A stretch of 64,000 nt of DNA from Opitutaceae bacterium (GTDB lineage: Bacteria > Verrucomicrobiota > Verrucomicrobiia > Opitutales > Opitutaceae): assembly GCA_027482185.1 (NCBI GenBank), contig JAIXWF010000013.1, positions 434,001-498,000 on the forward strand. The letters run 5' to 3'. The notes beneath the pieces were generated by a model. The model ran no database searches, had not been told where the DNA came from, and saw only the letters and a list, made by a program, of their open reading frames with translations. A program made the translations under genes and the position numbers. Numbering within the stretch: the first letter of the stretch is position 1; each line of letters begins with the position of its first letter. Shown here piece by piece: positions 47,475 through 55,984 of the stretch.

Positions 47475-48416
47475 TCAGATGCCGTTCACCCCGAGGATTT
47501 CCATCGCGCGCAAGGCGGCGGCGAGGCGCGTCTCGAGACCGAGCTTGGGCAGGAGATTGTAGACGTGTTTTTTGACGGTGTTCGGCGCGAGATCGAGGAT
47601 CGTGCCGATCTCGGCGTTGCTCTTGCCGTGCGCGATCCAGAAGAGGATTTCGGCTTCGCGCGGCGTGAGCCCGAGGGGTTCGAGCATGGCCGGGGTCGCG
47701 GTGGGCGGCGCCTCCTCGAGGAGCCAGAGCACGGCGTCGCTGTCCGGCCGGAGGGAGTGCGCCGCGCGGAGGCCCGGCACGGCCTGCCCTTTCAGCAACT
47801 CGTCGGGCAACCGGTCCGGCGGCCGGTCCGGGAAGTGGCGATCCAGCAGCCGCGCGGCGCGATCGCTGCAGAACCGGACCGCGCCGGCGGGCGACGCGAC
47901 GACCACCGCGCGGTCGAGCGCGCGCTGCATGGCGCGCTCCGTCGCGATGCGGCGCTGCATCTCGAGTTCGAGCACGTCGTTCTGCCGCTGCAGTTCGGCG
48001 GCGTGGGCCGCGAGTTCCCGTTGCAGCTGGCGGATGCGCAGGTGCGCGGCGGCGCGCGCCATGACTTCCTCGGCCTGGAACGGTTTCGTCACGTAGTCGA
48101 CCCCGCCCGCGGAGAAACCGGCGACCTTGTCGGCCATTTCCCCGAGCGCGGTGATGAAGAGCACGGGGATGGCCGCGGCGGCCGGGTCGGCCTTGAGCCT
48201 GCGGCAAACATCGAGTCCGCCGAGCCCGGGCATGTTGACGTCGAGCAAGATCAGATCCGGCTGCACCGCGGGGAGCCGGGCGAGCGCGGCCTCGCCGCTT
48301 TGCGCGATGAAAATCTTCGCGCCGGCGGAAACGAGGAACTCGCCGAGCGCCCCGAGGTTGGCGGGCACGTCGTCGACGAGCAGAATGCGGGCATCCTGGA
48401 GCGGGGAGTCAGGCAT
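47475..48416 (-). CDS. Response regulator, REC plus LuxR-type HTH (second copy)
   Basis: A 313-residue DNA-binding response regulator paralogous to that at 13439. Receiver: D15/D16 (LLVDDVP), phosphoacceptor D59 (LILLDVNMPG), K in YVTKPF. A coiled linker follows (LQRELAAHAAELQRQNDVLE), a PAS-like fragment (ALDRAVVVASPAGAVRFC) and a LuxR HTH (LTPREAEILFWIAHGKSNAE, then TVKKHVYNLLPKL). Its start codon overlaps the 3' end of the hybrid kinase gene by 8 bp, so the pair is cotranscribed and translationally coupled. Targets are unknown; the divergent genes at 52240 and 55319 are plausible. Confidence 0.9.
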   Translation of the reverse strand: MPDSPLQDARILLVDDVPANLGALGEFLVSAGAKIFIAQSGEAALARLPAVQPDLILLDVNMPGLGGLDVCRRLKADPAAAAIPVLFITALGEMADKVAGFSAGGVDYVTKPFQAEEVMARAAAHLRIRQLQRELAAHAAELQRQNDVLELEMQRRIATERAMQRALDRAVVVASPAGAVRFCSDRAARLLDRHFPDRPPDRLPDELLKGQAVPGLRAAHSLRPDSDAVLWLLEEAPPTATPAMLEPLGLTPREAEILFWIAHGKSNAEIGTILDLAPNTVKKHVYNLLPKLGLETRLAAALRAMEILGVNGI

Positions 48417-51400
48417 GGGGCGAAGGTTCCGGCGGGCCCGCGGCGCGCAGCAGGGCGACGACCGCTTCGAGTTCGTAGGTGGCTGTGAGTTCCTCGAGCC
48501 GCCCGATCCACGCCGCCGGCGCGGGGTACTCGGCCCGGCACCGCGCGAGGGCGGCGCGCAGGGCCCCGATGTCCCCGTTCTCCGCGTGGACGAGCAGTTC
48601 CCGCGCCGCGGCCGGCGGCGGCGCGGCGCCTTCCCCGCGCAGGGCGGCGGCGGGGCGGTTGGTCTGCCAGGTGAGGTTCAAGACCCGCCCGAGCACCGAC
48701 CAGAGTTGGGATTCGGCGAACGGTTTCGCGACGAAGTCGTCGCAGCCCGCGGCCGTCGCTTCGTGCCGGTCCGACGGAAACACGTGCGCGGAGACGGCGA
48801 CGATCTTCACGGCCGCCCCGGCGCGGGCGCGCAGTTCGCGCGCGACGGCGTAACCGTCGGGGCCCTGGCCGAGCCGCAGGTCGAGCAGCACGAGATCCGA
48901 GGCGCGCGCGGCGAAGGCGTCGCGGGCCTGCGCCGCGTCCGCCGCCGTCGCCACTTCGAAACCCACCTGGCGCAGCAGCTCGGCGAGGGCGGTGCGGCCG
49001 GCTTCGTCGTCGTCGACCACCAGCGCGTGCAGCCGGCGGCCGGCGTAGCCGACGACCGTGCCGACGGTGTGGTCCGGTCCGCCTCCGGCCGGCGCGAGCG
49101 GCAGCGTGAGATCGAACCAGAAATGGCTGCCGCGGCCGGGTTCGCTGCCGACGCACAGTTCGCTGCCGAGCAGGGCGACCAGCCGCTGGCTCAACGCGAG
49201 GCCGAGGCCCGTGCCCTGTTGCGAACCGTCGCCGGCCGCGCCGAAGGGCTGGAAGATGAGCGGCAGACGGTCCGCCGCGATGCCGGGGCCGGTGTCATGG
49301 ACGGAAAACCTGACGGCGCTGGTGCCGAACGGCATCCGCGAGCCGAACGGCGGCCGGCTGGCGCCGCCGGCAGGGGCGGGACCGACGGTGAAGACAACGC
49401 CGCCGCGGACCGTGTACTGCACGGCGTTGCCGAGCAAATTGAGCAGCACCTGGCGCAGCTTCTGTTCGTCGGTGCGCACCGCGGCGGGCAGGGCCGGATC
49501 GATTTCCACGTTGAAGCCGAGGCCCTTGGTCTCGGCGCGCACGCGCGTGAGTTCGGCCACGCTGCGGATGACGCCGCGCAGGTCGCAATCGCGTTCGTCC
49601 AGGGAGAGCCGGCCCGATTCGACCTTGGCCAGGTCGAGCACCTCGTTGATGAGCGCGAGCAGATGTTCGCCGCTGCGGGTGATCACGGCGGCGCGGGCGC
49701 GTTGCGCCTCCGGCAGGCTCGATTCGCGGCGCAGCAACTGGGCGTAGCCGAGAATGCCGTTGAGGGGCGTTCGCAGCTCGTGGCTCATCGTCGCGAGGAA
49801 GGTGCTCTTGGCGCGGTTGGCGGCGTCGGCGGCATCCCGCGCGGCCCGCAACTCGGCCGTTTGTTCGGCGATGGCGGCGAGAAGTTGTTCGTTGCGCCGC
49901 CGCAGGGCCCGGCCGCGCCAGCGCACGAAACCCGCGAGCGCGAGGCCGGTCGCGGCCACCGCCGCGCCACGCGCCCACCACGTCGACCACCACGGCGGCG
50001 GGATCACGAAAGCGAGAGTGGCTTCCGGTCCCCAGACGCCGCTGCCGTCGCGGGCCCGCACCGCGAACGTGAACCGCCCGGGCGGCAGGTTGGTGTAGAC
50101 GCGGGTGCGGGTCGCGCCGGGCTCGCTCCAGTCGGCGTCGAAGCCGCGCAGCTGCGTTTGCCAACTCGGCGCGTGCAGCGTCGGCAGGGCGGCAAACTCG
50201 AACGTCAGGTCCTGCCGGCCGGCCGGGAGGCGTCCGTCCGCGGGCCACGTTCCGCCGCGGGCCGAGACGCCGCGGAGCAGGGCGACGGCCGCCGGCGGGG
50301 TCGTCGACTTGGCGGTGTCGAACCGTTCGAACGCTTCCTGGGCGGCCAGCCACCGGATGGTTCCCTCCCGCCGGGTCGATGGGGCGTCGGGCCAGACTCC
50401 TTCCATGGCCGCCGTCCAGTCGGGATCGATCTCGGGCGCAGCGGCCGGCAGCGGGACGGGGCGGCCGAGCTTGCGGTCGAAGCCCCAGCGCTCCGTGCCG
50501 ATCCCGAAACGCGGTTCTCCGTCGTGCAACGCCACGGTCACCGGTCCGAGCGGCGAGGGCAGGGGGGCGCCGGCGGTGAACGGCGTGACCCGCACGACCG
50601 GTCGCGGCGCGCCGGGGGCCGGCGCCGGGCCGAACTCCACGCGCCAGAGGCCGCGGAGGTTGGACGCCAGCCAGAGGTCCCCGTGCCGATCCTCGGCGAC
50701 GCCGTGAAAGTTTCCCGCCAGCCCGGCGTAGGGTCGTTCGGCCGCCCAGCGGTCGCCTTGGCGGCTGAACCGCGACAAACCGGCCCCGCTGCCCGAGGCG
50801 CCCCACACGACGCCGGGTTCGGCGGTCGAAACGGCCAACTTCAGCACGGTCGGCGGGCCGAGCACCGGCACGGGATCCGTCCGGCCGGACGCGACCGCGA
50901 CGACCCGGTCGTTTTCCGCCAGGAGCAATCCGAACGGCGTGGACGCCAGCGAAAAGACCGGCTGCGCGCCGATGCCCGGCAGCGGTTCGAAGCGGGCGTT
51001 GGCCAACGTCGCGGTGTCGCGGCGGATGAGCCGGAAGGCGCCCGCGGTGGTCGCGAGGTGGAGATCGTTTTCGTGGCGGGCGACGTCGTTGACCGAGGCG
51101 CCGGCGAGGCCGTGCGCCGTCCCGAAGGAGGAACGCGGGGTGTCGAGCCAGATGCGGACCGCGCCGCGGTTGGTGCCGGCCCACAGCGTGCCGACGCGGT
51201 CGATTGCGCCGAGGCGCACGAGGGGATTCGGCAAACCTTCCGCGGGTCCGATGCGGCGCACGAAGCGGCCGCGGGCGTCGAGTTGGATCAGGCCGTGCCG
51301 GGTCGTGCCGAGCAGCAGGTCGCCGGACGCGAGGCGCAGGGCGGAAAGGAGCGCGTTGTTGTCGCGGAGCAGCGCATCGGCGTCGGTCGGAAGCGGCGTC

Positions 51401-52134
51401 GCGGCGCCCCCGGGGGCGATGCGCCAAAGCCCGTGGGCGGCGGTCGCGTAGAGGAGTTCGCCGCCCGGGCCGGTCACCCACGCGGCCACGAGGGCGGTCG
51501 GCAAAATCCGGGGATCGGCGGACACCTCGCTGCGGCGATCGCCGTCCAGGCGGTCGAGGGGCCGGCCGGCGACTTTGACGAAGATGTCGGCGCCTTCGCC
51601 GCCGAGCCGCTGGAAAATCTGCGGGTTCGGGTCGCGCCAGACGGTGAACCGCCCGTCGTGCCAGCGGAACACGCGCGACCCCGCGCCGAAGTAAACGCTG
51701 TCGGTGCCCGCGCGCACGTTCCAGACGGCCCCCATCTCGCGGTCGCCCTCGGGCAGGCGGTCGCGCAGCGAGACGAACCGCTTCCGGCCGAACGGGCCCG
51801 GTTCCAGATAGCCGAGTTCGTCGACGCCGCCGACATAGATGCGGCCGTCGGGCCCGGTGCCGAGCGCGCGGACATACAGCGTAGTACCAATCGGGATACG
51901 CGACCACGCGGTGCCGTCCGTCTCGAGCACGCAACCTTCGTTGCCGAGGTAGACCAGACCGGCGCGGTCGACGGCCGAGGCCCAGACCTGGTGGCTGGCG
52001 CCGTAGTCGCGGGCCGCGAAGGCCCGGACCGGCGGCTGGCCTTCCTCCGCCTCCGGCGCGGCGCCCGCGGGGACGGCGAGCAGGCAGGCCCAGACCGCGG
52101 CCAGCCGGACGAGAGTTGGAAAGGAAGAGGCGAT
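48409..52134 (-). CDS. Hybrid sensor histidine kinase with propeller sensor; start codon not canonical
   Basis: About 1241 residues with the same layout as the kinase at 14317. It has a hydrophobic leader (LVRLAAVWACLLAVPAGA), two-component propeller repeats (for example GTLWAGTNRGAVRIW and HGDLWLASNLRGLWRV), a Y_Y_Y domain (QLRGFDADWSEPGATRTRVY), and a transmembrane helix (ARGAAVAATGLALAGFV). HisKA follows with the phospho-acceptor His in ATMSHELRTPLNG (H785 from the start used here), then HATPase_c (GTGLGLALSQR), a receiver domain (VLLDLRLGQGPDG) and a helical tail. No ATG, GTG or TTG lies in frame between the divergent gene at 52240 and the signal peptide. ATC at 52134 is used as a provisional start. 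A non-standard start or an upstream frameshift must be involved. Confidence 0.85.
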   Translation of the reverse strand: MASSFPTLVRLAAVWACLLAVPAGAAPEAEEGQPPVRAFAARDYGASHQVWASAVDRAGLVYLGNEGCVLETDGTAWSRIPIGTTLYVRALGTGPDGRIYVGGVDELGYLEPGPFGRKRFVSLRDRLPEGDREMGAVWNVRAGTDSVYFGAGSRVFRWHDGRFTVWRDPNPQIFQRLGGEGADIFVKVAGRPLDRLDGDRRSEVSADPRILPTALVAAWVTGPGGELLYATAAHGLWRIAPGGAATPLPTDADALLRDNNALLSALRLASGDLLLGTTRHGLIQLDARGRFVRRIGPAEGLPNPLVRLGAIDRVGTLWAGTNRGAVRIWLDTPRSSFGTAHGLAGASVNDVARHENDLHLATTAGAFRLIRRDTATLANARFEPLPGIGAQPVFSLASTPFGLLLAENDRVVAVASGRTDPVPVLGPPTVLKLAVSTAEPGVVWGASGSGAGLSRFSRQGDRWAAERPYAGLAGNFHGVAEDRHGDLWLASNLRGLWRVEFGPAPAPGAPRPVVRVTPFTAGAPLPSPLGPVTVALHDGEPRFGIGTERWGFDRKLGRPVPLPAAAPEIDPDWTAAMEGVWPDAPSTRREGTIRWLAAQEAFERFDTAKSTTPPAAVALLRGVSARGGTWPADGRLPAGRQDLTFEFAALPTLHAPSWQTQLRGFDADWSEPGATRTRVYTNLPPGRFTFAVRARDGSGVWGPEATLAFVIPPPWWSTWWARGAAVAATGLALAGFVRWRGRALRRRNEQLLAAIAEQTAELRAARDAADAANRAKSTFLATMSHELRTPLNGILGYAQLLRRESSLPEAQRARAAVITRSGEHLLALINEVLDLAKVESGRLSLDERDCDLRGVIRSVAELTRVRAETKGLGFNVEIDPALPAAVRTDEQKLRQVLLNLLGNAVQYTVRGGVVFTVGPAPAGGASRPPFGSRMPFGTSAVRFSVHDTGPGIAADRLPLIFQPFGAAGDGSQQGTGLGLALSQRLVALLGSELCVGSEPGRGSHFWFDLTLPLAPAGGGPDHTVGTVVGYAGRRLHALVVDDDEAGRTALAELLRQVGFEVATAADAAQARDAFAARASDLVLLDLRLGQGPDGYAVARELRARAGAAVKIVAVSAHVFPSDRHEATAAGCDDFVAKPFAESQLWSVLGRVLNLTWQTNRPAAALRGEGAAPPPAAARELLVHAENGDIGALRAALARCRAEYPAPAAWIGRLEELTATYELEAVVALLRAAGPPEPSPHA

Positions 52135-52146
52135 GGCGAATCGGAA

Positions 52147-52192
52147 GGCCCGGGATGCTCTCCGGGCAACGCCGAAGTCCGGGCCTACTACT
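52147..52192. repeat. CCCGGG-type hairpin at the kinase 5' end
   Basis: GCCCGG (52148-52153) and CCGGGC (52162-52167) form a hairpin with an 8-nt loop, and a further CCGGGCC follows at 52179-52185. It lies exactly where the start of the kinase gene should be, in the 105-bp space between that gene and the divergent gene at 52240. It resembles the hairpin at 39153. Confidence 0.4.
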
Positions 52193-52239: not shown

Positions 52240-55200
52240 ATGCAACATTTGCCCCCGCTTCCCGCCTTTGCCCGTGCGTCCCGGTTTGGCCGGACGCTCT
52301 TCGTTGCCAGTTTGCTGACGGTGCCGGCCTGGTCGGCGCAGGATCTCTACCTCTTGGCTGGCGCGAAACCGGCGGCGCCGGCACCGCTCGCCGCGAGTCC
52401 CGGTACCGCTGCGGCGACGGACGCCGTGCCTTCGGCCGGCGGCAAGAAATACGACGGGGTACCGAATGCCCCGTTGGTCTACACGATCGGCGGACTGCAC
52501 GGCGCGTACGAAGCCGGCGGCAAGACCCGCTTCGCGCTTTACGCCGACGCCTACGCGCGTGCCGGCACGGCGGTGCAGGCCCGGGTCGTCTACGATTTCG
52601 ACGGCAACGGCACGGCCGACCGGGTCGAGACCTACCGCTACTTCGCCGTCAACAACGTCGCCAACTGGGAACTGTACACCGAGGTGATCCGCAGCGGGCT
52701 GCTGTCCGCCACCGGGGCGTTCGCCGATTTCCGGGGCGGCAGCATCTGCTTCGAAGTCTGGAGCGCGTTGGGCAACGACCCGATCTACGTCCGCACGGGC
52801 GTGCCGGCCGGCGGTACGGCGCAGTCGAAACTTTCGGTGCCGTTCGTGTTTGCGGCGGCCCCCGCCCCGGTGCCGACACCTCCGCCGGCTCCCGCTCCCG
52901 CTCCGGCGCCGACGCCCGCGCCGACGCCGGTTCCGGTCGTCACCCCGTTGCCGACGGTGAGTCCCACGCCGATCTCCGTGACCGGGCCGGCCGTGAAGCC
53001 GGAGATCGCGGGACCGTTGCTGTACTTGCGCTCCGGTGCGACCGAGACGACGGCGGCGGCGCTGAGTCCGACTCCGGGCGCGGGCGCGGCGGCGGATGCG
53101 GTCCCCGCGGCCGGCGGCCAGAAATTCGACCTGCAGCCGAATCGGCCGCTCGTCTACCGCGCGACCGGACTCCACGCCGCTTACGTCGCCGGCGGAATCA
53201 CGCAGTTCAAACTCTACGTCGACGCCGGGGCCGCGCCGCAGAATGCCGTGCAGGTGCGCGTCTCGTACGATTTCCGCGGCGACGGCACCTGGGACCGCGT
53301 CGACCAATACGCGTACTACGCCGTCAACGACGTGCCTAACTGGGAGGAGTACGCGCACAATTCGCGGGACGGCCTCGCGTTTGCCGCGGGCAACTTCGCC
53401 GATCTGGCCAACGGCACGGTGCAGCTCGAAATCTGGAGTGCGCTCGGCACGGTTGCGCCGCAGGTCCGCACGGGCGCGACGCTCGCCGAGGGCAACGTGT
53501 CCCAGGTGACGATCCCGTTCCGATTCGGCGTTGAGCCGGTGGCGGTTTCGCCCGGCGGGCTCACGCCGGTAGGCGGCGGGACGACCGGCGGCGAGACGCC
53601 GACCGTGGTGCCCGGCGAACTTCCGGAGCGTTTTCGCCAAGTGATCGGCAATCTGGCCGAAGGCTCGGGCGCGAGCAGCCATCCCGGGACGATTGCGTTT
53701 CCCGAGAGCATTCTGACGCCGGCGGATCACCCGGAATTTGCCCCGGCGGCCGCGGCGACGGCCGCGTGGTCGACGGAGACTTTGACGACGGTGCTGGCCG
53801 AAGGTCTGACCGCGTGGCGCCGGCCCGGCAATCACGGCAGCTGCGTCGGTTGCCACACACCCGATGCCATCGATCTCGCGTTGATCGGTTACTCCGATGC
53901 CACGGTGAAGCGGCGCGCGCTGGATCACGTCGACGAGACGGACGCGGACCGCATCGTGGCGTTGGTAAAGGCGCAGCGCCGGTTGAACGGCATCGTGCGG
54001 CCCCTCGATCCGTTGAAATTCCGGCCGCTGCAGCCGGCGCTGGAGGTGCTGCCGGGCGCGACGCCGCAGGCCCGCGACGAGGCCTTCGGCCGCCTGCTGA
54101 AGGACGAAGTGAAACTCATCTGGGCCGCGCGGCGCATCGAGACGCGGGCCGACGCGCTGGCCGCGCAGGCGCAGCTGCGCGACCTCGACCTGCGCAAACT
54201 GCCGGTCGGCATTCCCTTCGACCGTTGGTCGGAGGACCACACGCTGGGCGACAGCCACCGCAGCGTCGCGGAATGGCTGCCGGGCATGGGCCTGCAGCCC
54301 AAGGCCGGCCGGGCCGCCGAGTGGTACGCGTTGCACGACGCGTACATCGTCGAACCCTCGGACGCGAAATTCTGGGCCTACTTCTCCCGCATCGACGAGT
54401 TGCTCGAGAGCGTGGAGCCGGCGGGCTACGCGCTCGGCTTCGAGTGGAGCGTGCAGAAGTACAAGTCCGTGCAGATCGCGCAGCACATGCTGCGGCACCG
54501 TTCGCTCGCGTTCCCGAATCCGCTCGTCGGCCGCACGGGCACCGCGGTGGCCAACCGCGAGACCATCCTCGACCGCAATCCGATCTTCCGCACCGGCGAC
54601 CACCTGCGGCGCTTCCCGCTCTTCGCCGACGAAGCCAAACCGGCGACGACGTTCCCGGCGTTCCTGGCGCCGACCTTGCCGGCCACGGAAGCCGCGCGGC
54701 GCGAGCAGACGGAGCAGTTCTTCCGTTCGTGGTTCTGGATGGGCTGGACCTTCGACCCGGCGTTGCTGCGGTCGGACCGCATCTTCCAGACCGTCGAGGG
54801 CGATTACCTCTACGCCAGCCTGCTCGCGGACTACAAACTGCACCACGCGTTCGTGGTGGCGAAGACCTCGGTGGCCAAGGCCGGGGCGACGGAGTGGTTC
54901 AACGCGCCCGGCGCCGGCGTGGCGGGCCACGGCAAGTGGGCGAGCTTCACGCCGTTCATGGTGCTGCACCACATCGAGCGGAACCGGAACGAACCCGGTG
55001 CCGCCGACCCGCGCCGCGCCGCGCACGATCTGATGTTCAGCAACACGGCGCGCCTTTGGATCCATCTGGTGGACGAAGATCTCGAGCGCACCGGCACGGT
55101 CTACGACCGCTACCTCGTGCGGAACTCGATCCGGTTTGCGCGCCAGTGGCTGAATGCCACCGAGCCGGGCGTCGACCGCACGGCCCTCGACGCCGTCATC

Positions 55201-55287
55201 GTGCAACTCGAGCAACGCCTCGATGCGGCGCGCGAACTGCGCACCGACTTCACGACCGAAGATCTGTCCAACGCACTGCCCTTCTGA
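52240..55287 (+). CDS. Secreted monoheme protein with duplicated beta module; family not recognised
   Basis: A 1015-residue exported protein (signal peptide with RFGRTLFVASLLTVPAWSA). Residues about 36-205 and 263-430 are two clear copies of one module: both have DAVP-AGG-K, then LVY...GLH-AY-AGG, then a YDF-G-GT-DRV turn resembling a calcium-binding loop, and end in EVWSALG...VRTG. A long Pro/Ala linker with repeated PAPAP and PTPAPTP joins them. The next 585 residues contain one heme c site, CVGCH (535-539), followed by an all-new domain with several His-rich segments (KLHHAFVV, VLHHIERN). No second CxxCH is present. I do not recognise the C-terminal domain. The gene is divergent from the hybrid kinase and is followed 31 bp later by the PEP-CTERM gene, which suggests one exported unit. 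Confidence 0.85.
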   Translation: MQHLPPLPAFARASRFGRTLFVASLLTVPAWSAQDLYLLAGAKPAAPAPLAASPGTAAATDAVPSAGGKKYDGVPNAPLVYTIGGLHGAYEAGGKTRFALYADAYARAGTAVQARVVYDFDGNGTADRVETYRYFAVNNVANWELYTEVIRSGLLSATGAFADFRGGSICFEVWSALGNDPIYVRTGVPAGGTAQSKLSVPFVFAAAPAPVPTPPPAPAPAPAPTPAPTPVPVVTPLPTVSPTPISVTGPAVKPEIAGPLLYLRSGATETTAAALSPTPGAGAAADAVPAAGGQKFDLQPNRPLVYRATGLHAAYVAGGITQFKLYVDAGAAPQNAVQVRVSYDFRGDGTWDRVDQYAYYAVNDVPNWEEYAHNSRDGLAFAAGNFADLANGTVQLEIWSALGTVAPQVRTGATLAEGNVSQVTIPFRFGVEPVAVSPGGLTPVGGGTTGGETPTVVPGELPERFRQVIGNLAEGSGASSHPGTIAFPESILTPADHPEFAPAAAATAAWSTETLTTVLAEGLTAWRRPGNHGSCVGCHTPDAIDLALIGYSDATVKRRALDHVDETDADRIVALVKAQRRLNGIVRPLDPLKFRPLQPALEVLPGATPQARDEAFGRLLKDEVKLIWAARRIETRADALAAQAQLRDLDLRKLPVGIPFDRWSEDHTLGDSHRSVAEWLPGMGLQPKAGRAAEWYALHDAYIVEPSDAKFWAYFSRIDELLESVEPAGYALGFEWSVQKYKSVQIAQHMLRHRSLAFPNPLVGRTGTAVANRETILDRNPIFRTGDHLRRFPLFADEAKPATTFPAFLAPTLPATEAARREQTEQFFRSWFWMGWTFDPALLRSDRIFQTVEGDYLYASLLADYKLHHAFVVAKTSVAKAGATEWFNAPGAGVAGHGKWASFTPFMVLHHIERNRNEPGAADPRRAAHDLMFSNTARLWIHLVDEDLERTGTVYDRYLVRNSIRFARQWLNATEPGVDRTALDAVIVQLEQRLDAARELRTDFTTEDLSNALPF

Positions 55288-55318: not shown

Positions 55319-55984
55319 ATGCTCATCACACGCGGTCTTTTCCTCGCGGCCATGTTTCTCGCGGCAACCTCGGGTCTGTCGGCGCAGGCCGTCATCACCT
55401 GGGGCACGCCGACGGCCGTCGCGACGCCGGCCGACATCGTCACGACGGGCACTTTCCACGCCGCGGGCAGCGGTTTCAACGCGGACCGCACGGTCGGCGG
55501 CGTGACGTTCCAGACCGCACCGACGTTGATCACGTACGGCGGGAACAGGATCGGTTACACCCCCGGTACCTTCTCCTCGGGCACGGCCGCCTACAACGAC
55601 ATCATGAACCGCGGCTATTTCACCGCGGTCGGCGGCAGTGCGAACGTCACGCTCGGCGGGCTCACGATCGGCGACCAGTACCGCGTCCAGGTCTGGATCC
55701 CGGCCTGGGATGCCAACTTTGCGACGCGGCTGAGCGGCACGACGTCGGTGGACATGGGCAACACGATCACGTTTCCGACCTACGTGATCGGGACGTTCAC
55801 CGCCGCGGCGACGTCCGAGTTCTTCAGTTACCAAGGCTACGGCGGCGCCGCCCGCGGCCTGGTCGGCGCGGTGTCGGTCTACAACGTCAGCGCCATTCCC
55901 GAACCGTCGGTCTACGCCGCGCTGGCGGGGGCGGCGGTGCTGGCGGCCGCGCTGTGGCGGCGCCGGGGTCTGCGCGGCGTATAG
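55319..55984 (+). CDS. PEP-CTERM sorting-domain protein
   Basis: A 221-residue exported protein with a signal peptide (LITRGLFLAAMFLAATSGLSA) and a C-terminal PEP-CTERM signal: IPEPSVYAALAGAAVLAAAL followed by WRRR. That signal directs it to an exosortase/EpsH-type sorting system associated with exopolysaccharide. The mature part is rich in Gly, Thr and Asn and reads as a beta-sandwich (TLGGLTIGDQYRVQVWIPAW), a type often found in these proteins. It has no enzyme motif. Position right behind the monoheme gene suggests cotranscription. No exosortase gene is present in the window. Confidence 0.88.
   Translation: MLITRGLFLAAMFLAATSGLSAQAVITWGTPTAVATPADIVTTGTFHAAGSGFNADRTVGGVTFQTAPTLITYGGNRIGYTPGTFSSGTAAYNDIMNRGYFTAVGGSANVTLGGLTIGDQYRVQVWIPAWDANFATRLSGTTSVDMGNTITFPTYVIGTFTAAATSEFFSYQGYGGAARGLVGAVSVYNVSAIPEPSVYAALAGAAVLAAALWRRRGLRGV

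What the first reader, a model, noticed from the sequence alone, without database searches (positions are those of the whole stretch)
52240..55287. Undescribed 1015-residue monoheme protein with duplicated modules
The protein joins two copies of a ~170-residue beta module with calcium-loop-like turns, a Pro-rich hinge, a single CVGCH heme site and a 480-residue unknown His-rich domain. I know of no named family with this plan. The modules look like carbohydrate- or surface-binding parts (a recollection, not a search), so the heme domain might act on a surface polymer.
Basis: partly seen in the sequence, partly recalled or inferred. Interest (0 to 1): 0.75.

Follow-up and report, generated by a model that had tools for sequence, protein, structure and literature searches.

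The report
Glycan-linked single-haem protein family
A bacterium carries a probably secreted single-haem protein whose front half resembles a part of known glucan-cutting enzymes, and it belongs to an unnamed haem family that may help bacteria oxidise or break down polysaccharides outside the cell.

Summary
The 1015-aa ORF at 52240-55287 is real: two N-terminal modules (51% identical), a Pro-rich hinge, one CVGCH site and a ~480-residue core with no Pfam or NCBIfam match. 'His-rich' does not hold (15 of 481).

The modules are 39-41% identical to the C-terminal module of Streptomyces GH81 beta-1,3-glucanases. The core is an unnamed monohaem family: close relatives in Myxococcota, Opitutaceae and Gemmatimonadota, a distant branch also in other Verrucomicrobiota and Caballeronia. 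In 28 of 28 cores CXXCH, Q598, P599, W679 and W831 are invariant; H563, a likely distal haem ligand, in 25.

At least 4 of 29 proteins scanned carry glycan-binding-type modules, and 4 of 14 loci with scanned neighbours have polysaccharide enzymes close by (GH28; rhamnogalacturonase-like; four sulfatases plus GH26; 3-keto-disaccharide hydrolase).

Best reading: a secreted, glycan-tethered c-type haem redox protein of polysaccharide breakdown. No AA10 LPMO was found in this genome, so the usual electron-donor idea is unlikely. It works like Cbp2D or PSCyt cytochromes but is not PSCyt/PSD; X132 could not be tested. Substrate, redox direction and catalysis are not shown.

The parts
52240..55287 (+). 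whole gene, 1015 aa, probably secreted monohaem protein (P0001)
   Evidence: relative with 93% identity in the best segment; modules of the same kind in one other genome of the genus, which by contig and position appears to be that same relative
52240..52335 (+). probable Sec signal peptide, residues 1-32 (inference from sequence)
   Evidence: hydrophobic stretch RTLFVASLLTVPAWSA read; no signal predictor was run
52336..52866 (+). module 1, residues 33-209, GH81-associated module, canonical Ca-type loop DFDGNGTADRVE
52867..53007 (+). Pro-rich hinge, residues 210-256
53008..53541 (+). module 2, residues 257-434, 51% identical to module 1 and about 40% identical to the Streptomyces GH81 C-terminal modules
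53773..53985 (+). mini c-type cytochrome, residues 512-582: N-terminal helix, CXXCH, two short helices, H563, C-terminal helix
   Evidence: AlphaFold2 model secondary structure, alignments
53842..53856 (+). CVGCH haem-attachment site, residues 535-539
   Evidence: CXXCH invariant in 28 of 28 cores
53926..53928 (+). H563, candidate distal haem ligand (inference)
   Evidence: 25 of 28 cores; sits just before the C-terminal helix of the mini cytochrome
53986..55284 (+). mostly helical cap, residues 583-1015, with invariant Q598, P599, W679, W831 and close-family H749
55319..55984 (+). PEP-CTERM surface-protein gene 31 bp downstream, probable operon partner
   Evidence: PEP-CTERM motif 20.3 bits, just under the cut-off of 20.7; spacing; also follows the gene in L005, 91% identical
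48409..52173 (-). divergent hybrid sensor kinase, Reg_prop/Y_Y_Y/HisKA/HATPase/receiver; exact start uncertain
   Evidence: 79% identical copy in the same place in L054
47475..48416 (-). response regulator, receiver + LuxR-type HTH

Best explanation
A secreted c-type haem redox protein that works on or at extracellular polysaccharide. The two N-terminal modules hold it on a glycan, perhaps a beta-1,3-glucan, given their use in GH81 enzymes. The mini cytochrome, with H539 and probably H563 as iron ligands, passes single electrons. The fused ~430-residue helical cap, with its invariant Trp and Gln and family-wide His, is the site where a sugar-oxidising reaction or a redox partner engages the haem. 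Shown: modules, haem motif, family, conservation, genomic company. Inferred: secretion, haem attachment, His/His ligation, glycan binding, redox role, direction of electron flow. In this organism the partner is not a known bacterial (AA10) LPMO.
For: The module is shared with two Streptomyces GH81 beta-1,3-glucanases. Relatives of the core carry glycan-binding-type modules: at least 4 of the 29 proteins (CBM6/CBM35 types in two, PA14 + F5/8C in one, Golvesin_C in one; the call counts by family, so the member with the ricin-type domain is not named), plus four F5/8C stretches in one of three later relatives. The 16 distant relatives checked all have a shared domain before the haem; 7 of the 16 touch the Pfam PL4 domain III 'CBM-like' model at E up to 1, best 2.9e-7 and over its cut-off when that domain is scanned alone, though the same protein scanned whole gave 26.6 bits against a cut-off of 27. 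Neighbours: two GH28 and a GDSL esterase in L010, a rhamnogalacturonase/epimerase-like gene in L060; four sulfatases and GH26 in L081, a 3-keto-disaccharide hydrolase and an alpha-amylase-like gene in L080. A Reg_prop/Y_Y_Y hybrid sensor, a type recalled from polysaccharide-utilisation loci, is divergent from the gene. Conserved haem site and candidate distal His.
Against: Most of the 29 proteins have no Pfam-recognised glycan module, and the Polyangium ones are plain lipoproteins by eye, with type VI secretion/phage-baseplate-type genes beside the one scanned, L006. Only 4 of 14 relatives' loci with scanned neighbours have polysaccharide enzymes close by, and I chose which neighbours to scan partly by looking at their sequence starts, so this is not an unbiased rate. 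No polysaccharide enzyme was recognised among the window's own neighbours that I scanned (kinase, regulator, PEP-CTERM protein, M28 peptidase). The module gave a poor model, so its fold is untested. Polyangium-type cores have Gln where H563 stands.
Confidence: 0.5

Rival explanations
1. The core is itself an oxidative enzyme: the haem c, under the conserved cap, activates peroxide or oxygen and attacks a polysaccharide directly.
For: The large conserved cap with invariant W679, W831, Q598, P599 and, in 16 of 16 close relatives, H749 is more than an electron carrier needs. Some relatives sit among hydrolytic enzymes as if adding a reaction. The authors of PMC12542752 hypothesise that Cbp2D/E cut cellulose by a novel mechanism (passages read).
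Against: H563 in 25 of 28 cores would make the iron six-coordinate, which favours electron transfer; the only substrate evidence is by association.
Confidence: 0.2
2. It is an electron donor to a lytic polysaccharide monooxygenase, as shown in vitro for the X183 cytochrome domain of Cbp2D.
For: A c-type cytochrome joined to CBM-like modules; X183 reduced LPMOs in vitro (PMC8981238, abstract and passages). 8 of 30 core-bearing Polyangia genomes have an LPMO_10 match against 1 of 27 without the core, but the former tend to be larger and only 3 of the 8 have strong matches. One relative has an LPMO_10 gene (E 8.7e-8) 4.4 kb away.
Against: No LPMO_10 match in the window's genome (98% complete) nor in the two other Opitutaceae-type genomes with the core (0 of 3). 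T. turnerae X183 domains did not drive an LPMO (PMC10916295, conclusions).
Confidence: 0.06
3. It serves the cell's own surface or matrix (with the PEP-CTERM neighbour) or extracellular respiration, and the modules bind the cell's own exopolysaccharide, not food.
For: PEP-CTERM gene 31 bp downstream, also next to the gene in the sister genome; stand-alone lipoprotein relatives in Polyangium; one gene with FixO/cbb3-type cytochrome domains about 5 kb further on in L005.
Against: Some relatives sit beside degradative enzymes; the module's other known home is a degradative GH81 enzyme.
Confidence: 0.16
4. The haem core is a redox or gas sensor feeding the divergent hybrid sensor kinase.
For: The kinase and a LuxR regulator lie next to the gene in both genomes of the genus found to carry it.
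Against: The neighbourhood is shared by close kin, so it is not independent evidence; no hybrid histidine kinase was seen among the neighbours scanned elsewhere (L061 has a Ser/Thr-kinase gene with C-type lectin domains next to its core).
Confidence: 0.04

Closest known systems
Cbp2D of Cellvibrio japonicus and TERTU_2913/TERTU_3803 of Teredinibacter turnerae (X158, X183, X132 domains)
   Same: Large extracellular proteins with c-type cytochrome domains, in Cbp2D and TERTU_3803 joined to CBMs; role in polysaccharide use open (PMC8981238 abstract and passages; PMC12542752 and PMC10154616 passages; PMC10916295 passages and conclusions). A YceI gene (the X158 kind) stands two genes after the core in the sister genome L005.
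   Different: No Pfam CBM2, FN3 or YceI domain in the window protein. Whether the core equals X132, which also has one CXXCH and no characterised homologue, could not be tested: no X132 sequence could be fetched.
Planctomycete-specific cytochromes (PSCyt1-3 with PSD1-5; DUF1587/DUF1592 names recalled)
   Same: Cytochrome proteins of unknown function, some with CBMs and with sulfatase neighbours, in Verrucomicrobia (PMC5615132, passages read).
   Different: The window core has no PSCyt or PSD match. A profile comparison with six of the genome's own PSD4 proteins gave probability about 5%. The window genome has 7 PSD4 matches besides.
GH81 endo-beta-1,3-glucanases of Streptomyces
   Same: Their C-terminal module is homologous to the window modules.
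   Different: The catalytic part is a glycoside hydrolase; no Pfam glycoside hydrolase is seen in the window protein.
Class I cytochrome c (for example cytochrome c4)
   Same: CXXCH plus helices in class-I-like order; profile match to cytochrome c4 over the haem motif region only, E 0.018.
   Different: Candidate distal ligand is His, only 24 residues after the proximal His; a ~430-residue cap is fused; no Pfam cytochrome match for P0001.

Membership tests
c-type cytochrome (any class) | CXXCH haem-attachment motif in an exported protein | tested here: met
   CVGCH at 535-539, CXXCH in 28 of 28 cores. The signal peptide is read by eye; haem itself is untested.
Class I cytochrome c (Pfam PF00034 / PF13442) | match to the class I cytochrome c models | tested here: not met
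   No Pfam family for P0001 up to E 10. PF13442 matches 5 and PF00034 3 of 29 proteins; in the two displayed one by one (L021, L030) they cover an extra N-terminal haem domain, not the core. On the core CXXCH of relatives only sub-threshold touches: SoxA-TsdA E 0.0034 and DUF1924 E 0.18 in L030, DUF1924 E 0.074 in L036.
Class I cytochrome c (Pfam PF00034 / PF13442) | distal Met ligand before the C-terminal helix (recalled rule) | tested here: not met
   H563 stands there in 25 of 28 cores and Gln in the three Polyangium-type ones; ligation itself is inferred.
PSCyt/PSD planctomycete cytochromes | PSCyt and PSD domains such as PSD4 (PF07631) | tested here: not met
   No Pfam match for P0001; none among the 13 families listed for 29 proteins. 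hhalign against 6 of the genome's 7 PSD4 proteins: probability 5.6% over 21 columns.
X132 domain (CAZy working name) | sequence homology to the C-terminal CXXCH domain of Cbp2D | not testable with these tools
   No X132 sequence was reachable; the passages read give no sequence.
X183 cytochrome domain | homology to CjX183 (solved structure) | tested here: inconclusive
   The core profile matched 4 PDB sequences up to E 10 and none is named as X183; sequence only.
MauG/RoxA-type di-haem enzymes | two CXXCH motifs in one chain (recalled) | tested here: not met
   One CXXCH only.
GH81-associated C-terminal module | significant sequence homology over the module | tested here: met
   39-41% identity, E 8e-22 and 6e-21, 74-76% of the module covered; alignment.
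Carbohydrate-binding module (CAZy CBM) | demonstrated carbohydrate binding | not testable with these tools
   No binding assay; no Pfam CBM match for either module.
LPMO electron-donor system | an LPMO in the same organism | tested here: not met
   PF03067 not found in G000 (98% complete), G117 or G501.

The most novel reading that the evidence does not exclude
The core is a new kind of extracellular oxidative enzyme for polysaccharides: a single haem c under a conserved helical cap that itself oxidises sugars in a polymer (for example to a keto-sugar that a 3-keto-disaccharide hydrolase, present beside one relative, could then process), without copper LPMOs. The family is modular, being fused to different glycan-binding-type domains in different phyla.
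Probability: 0.15. Interest if true: 0.88.

Novelty: new variant of a known kind. Interest (0 to 1): 0.6.

Why it matters
What extracellular, CBM-linked c-type cytochromes do in bacteria is an open question, stated as such in PMC10154616 (passages) and PMC10916295 (conclusions). This family offers compact single-haem cases, some in organisms where no AA10 LPMO was found, so that the usual electron-donor explanation does not apply, and in loci that suggest substrates (pectin; sulfated glycans; beta-1,3-glucan). That makes the question testable. It also exposes a haem family and a GH81-associated module that no Pfam model covers.

Tried and rejected
Searches that led nowhere. Pfam, NCBIfam and PDB by sequence for P0001: nothing in Pfam; NCBIfam matches only in the Pro-rich stretch, PDB matches mostly there and all weak. 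Module against the PDB: best matches were designed repeat proteins (single module E 4e-5; profile E 5e-4) with no single stretch passing, then weak others. Foldseek of the core model against the PDB: 178 rows up to E 10, none with E <= 0.001; VIA-align second look: best Z 7.5, among helical-repeat and designed proteins; neither gave a usable relative, and neither shows that the fold is new. Module model: mean pLDDT 40, so no fold search was made with it. Shared domain of the distant relatives against the PDB: one designed trefoil at E 0.027. Ten paper searches, judged from their listings, showed no description of this core family; the library holds open-licence papers only.

Considered and dropped. 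LPMO partner: no AA10 found in the genome. PSD/PSCyt membership: tested, not met; rows were taken in the wrong reading frame and row L068 still was, so, without L068, is the one to use. Di-haem MauG/RoxA: one haem motif only. 'His-rich': 15 of 481.

Limits of the counts. The 28 cores leave out near-duplicates (L007, L009), partial or edge copies (L005, L031) and L044, L045. The 27 core-negative genomes were picked by handle number out of 259. In the searches with an alignment at most 3, 4, 9 and 8 candidates per genome were scored in the rows shown, so the counts are lower bounds. Genomes G340 and G380, positive with a broad profile, were not among the matches with a two-row profile.
Full report
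What is there. Window 52240-55287 (+) encodes 1015 residues: a probable signal peptide, two modules 51% identical over 173 residues without a gap, a Pro-rich hinge, a Gly/Thr linker, one CVGCH at 535-539 and a long, mostly helical remainder.

The modules. In the window genome they occur twice, both in this protein; the other two matches are chance-level (E 0.23 and 0.33). Of 57 relatives' genomes two have them, the window's and one more of the same genus; of 387 genomes across the phylum one, the window's own. Two Streptomyces plasmid proteins carry the same module at 39-41% identity, E 8e-22 and 6e-21. Both proteins are GH81 by Pfam (PF17652, E 1.8e-63 and 2.1e-62), with the module at their C-terminus and no Pfam model over it. 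This is a usual place for a carbohydrate-binding module, so glycan binding is the likely role, by inference.

The core. Residues 500-1015 gave an AlphaFold2 model with mean pLDDT 84 and pTM 0.86 from 18 sequences. The first ~80 residues form a very small cytochrome: helix 512-527, CXXCH, two short helices, H563, helix 566-582. H563 stands where a class I cytochrome has its distal Met (comparison recalled). Over 28 cores, G522, C535, C538, H539, Q598, P599, W679 and W831 are invariant and H563 is kept in 25; H749 is kept in 16 of 16 close relatives. The three Polyangium-type rows (L006, L008, L020) have Gln for H563. No coordinates were available, so no distance to the haem could be measured.

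The family. Of 150 genomes of the same family, 2 have the core: the window's and an Opitutaceae MAG. One scan of the species-genome collection with a two-row alignment gave 6 loci of 83 pattern matches: a near-identical one in Opitutia bacterium Tous-C1TDCM, four Polyangium, and the Opitutaceae MAG again. A Gemmatimonadota plasmid has one. In the class of Polyangium 30 of 289 genomes match, 16 of them strongly (E 1.3e-36 or better) and 14 weakly. Weak and strong groups align as one family over the haem region and the following ~60 residues (hhalign probability 98.6, E 5.5e-16, 137 columns; joint alignment). A broader profile found 3 of 387 genomes of the phylum, and two Caballeronia plasmids carry a distant one. 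In a maximum-likelihood tree of 20 cores the window falls in a clade of 10 (99/98) whose other nine are Polyangium or come from the search of its class; the other Opitutaceae core, L003, lies outside. With the patchy presence this suggests horizontal transfer, though L003 is a long branch.

Company. Modules by Pfam among 29 proteins, the window's included: CBM_6 in 2, CBM_35 in 2, PA14 in 1, F5/8C in 1, Golvesin_C in 1, ricin-type in 1 (seen one by one in L033, L035 and L014). That is at least 4 proteins; most of the 29 show none. A 2230-residue relative has F5/8C four times plus fn3; two further relatives (L081, L075) gave no Pfam family. The sixteen distant relatives checked share a domain before the haem, found by its LPxEVLG-like start; 7 of 16 touch Pfam 'CBM-like', PL4 domain III, at E up to 1, best 2.9e-7, over the cut-off, while the same protein scanned whole stayed just under it (26.6 against 27). 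Neighbours: L010 GH28, GDSL, core, GH28; L060 a rhamnogalacturonase/epimerase-like gene just before the core; L081 core among four sulfatases and a GH26; L080 a 3-keto-disaccharide hydrolase and an alpha-amylase-like gene. Against this: L005, L006, L055, L058, L059, L061, L062, L063 and L064 show no polysaccharide enzyme among the neighbours scanned, though L061 and L062 have lectin-type genes (Lectin_C, Tachylectin), and L056 only an LPMO_10 gene at 4.4 kb. So 4 of 14 loci are clear. I scanned only some neighbours in each, picked partly by eye. L054, L057, L065, L066 and L075 are outside this count: their genes were called but not scanned, apart from the kinase of L054.

The window's own surroundings. 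A PEP-CTERM gene starts 31 bp after the stop and follows the gene in the sister genome too (91% identical). A divergent Reg_prop/Y_Y_Y hybrid histidine kinase and a LuxR-type regulator lie on the other side, 79% and 93% identical in the sister genome. There a YceI gene comes next after the PEP-CTERM gene; in the window an M28 peptidase gene is there. Since the two genomes are close kin, this synteny is weak evidence.

How it works. The best-supported reading is a secreted, glycan-tethered haem redox protein for polysaccharide use. The X183 cytochrome domain of Cbp2D can reduce LPMOs (PMC8981238, abstract and passages), but T. turnerae X183 domains did not drive one (PMC10916295, conclusions), and a review calls the role open (PMC10154616, passages). 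In the window's genome and the two other Opitutaceae-type genomes with the core no LPMO_10 was found (0 of 3). Of core-bearing Polyangia 8 of 30 have an LPMO_10 match, 3 of them strong, against 1 of 27 without the core, with genome size as an obvious confounder. So in the window's organism either the core is catalytic or it serves another oxidoreductase; I favour relay with the cap as docking or active site, and keep catalysis as the bold alternative.

Known kinds. It works like CBM-linked cytochromes (Cbp2D; PSCyt proteins with CBMs and sulfatase neighbours, PMC5615132, passages). It is not PSCyt/PSD by Pfam or profile. Identity with X132 is untested and is the main threat to novelty.

Noticed in passing
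L052:3411-3875 and L053:3417-3881: The C-terminal module of two Streptomyces GH81 beta-1,3-glucanases has no Pfam match and is shared with the window protein: a candidate unnamed carbohydrate-binding module.
   Followed up: partly
L080:4035-10724 (-): A 2230-residue Verrucomicrobiota protein with the haem core, a PL4-domain-III-like domain, four F5/8C stretches and fn3; next to a 3-keto-disaccharide hydrolase gene.
   Followed up: partly
L081:2945-15745 (-): A 1410-residue haem-core protein inside a cluster of four sulfatases and a GH26, which looks like a sulfated-polysaccharide locus.
   Followed up: partly
L005:1-1648 and L017: The near-identical copy in the Tous-C1TDCM MAG lies across a contig gap and its C-terminal part continues in another frame; assembly error or decay, left as it is.
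   Followed up: no
G000 (loci L068-L074): The window genome has seven PSD4 matches, so it holds other cytochrome-type proteins of unknown function as well.
   Followed up: partly
L032, L033, L035, L034, L036, L075, L081: The distant branch has a recognisable haem signature (by eye CxxCHxxDGxDLxYFxxSNxSIxxRxxFHxLTxxxGxxIAxYIRSL), wide enough to define a family model.
   Followed up: partly
L006:10111-16933: In Polyangium sp. 6x1 the stand-alone lipoprotein core lies upstream of genes matching phage-baseplate/type VI secretion, DUF2169 and pentapeptide-repeat families.
   Followed up: no
L005:2287-2844: A YceI-like gene (the family of the X158 domain of Cbp2D/E) directly follows the PEP-CTERM gene in the sister genome but not in the window.
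   Followed up: no
L061:4721-6754 (+): A Ser/Thr-kinase-like protein with C-type lectin domains is encoded just before the haem-core gene in this unnamed Polyangia-class genome.
   Followed up: no
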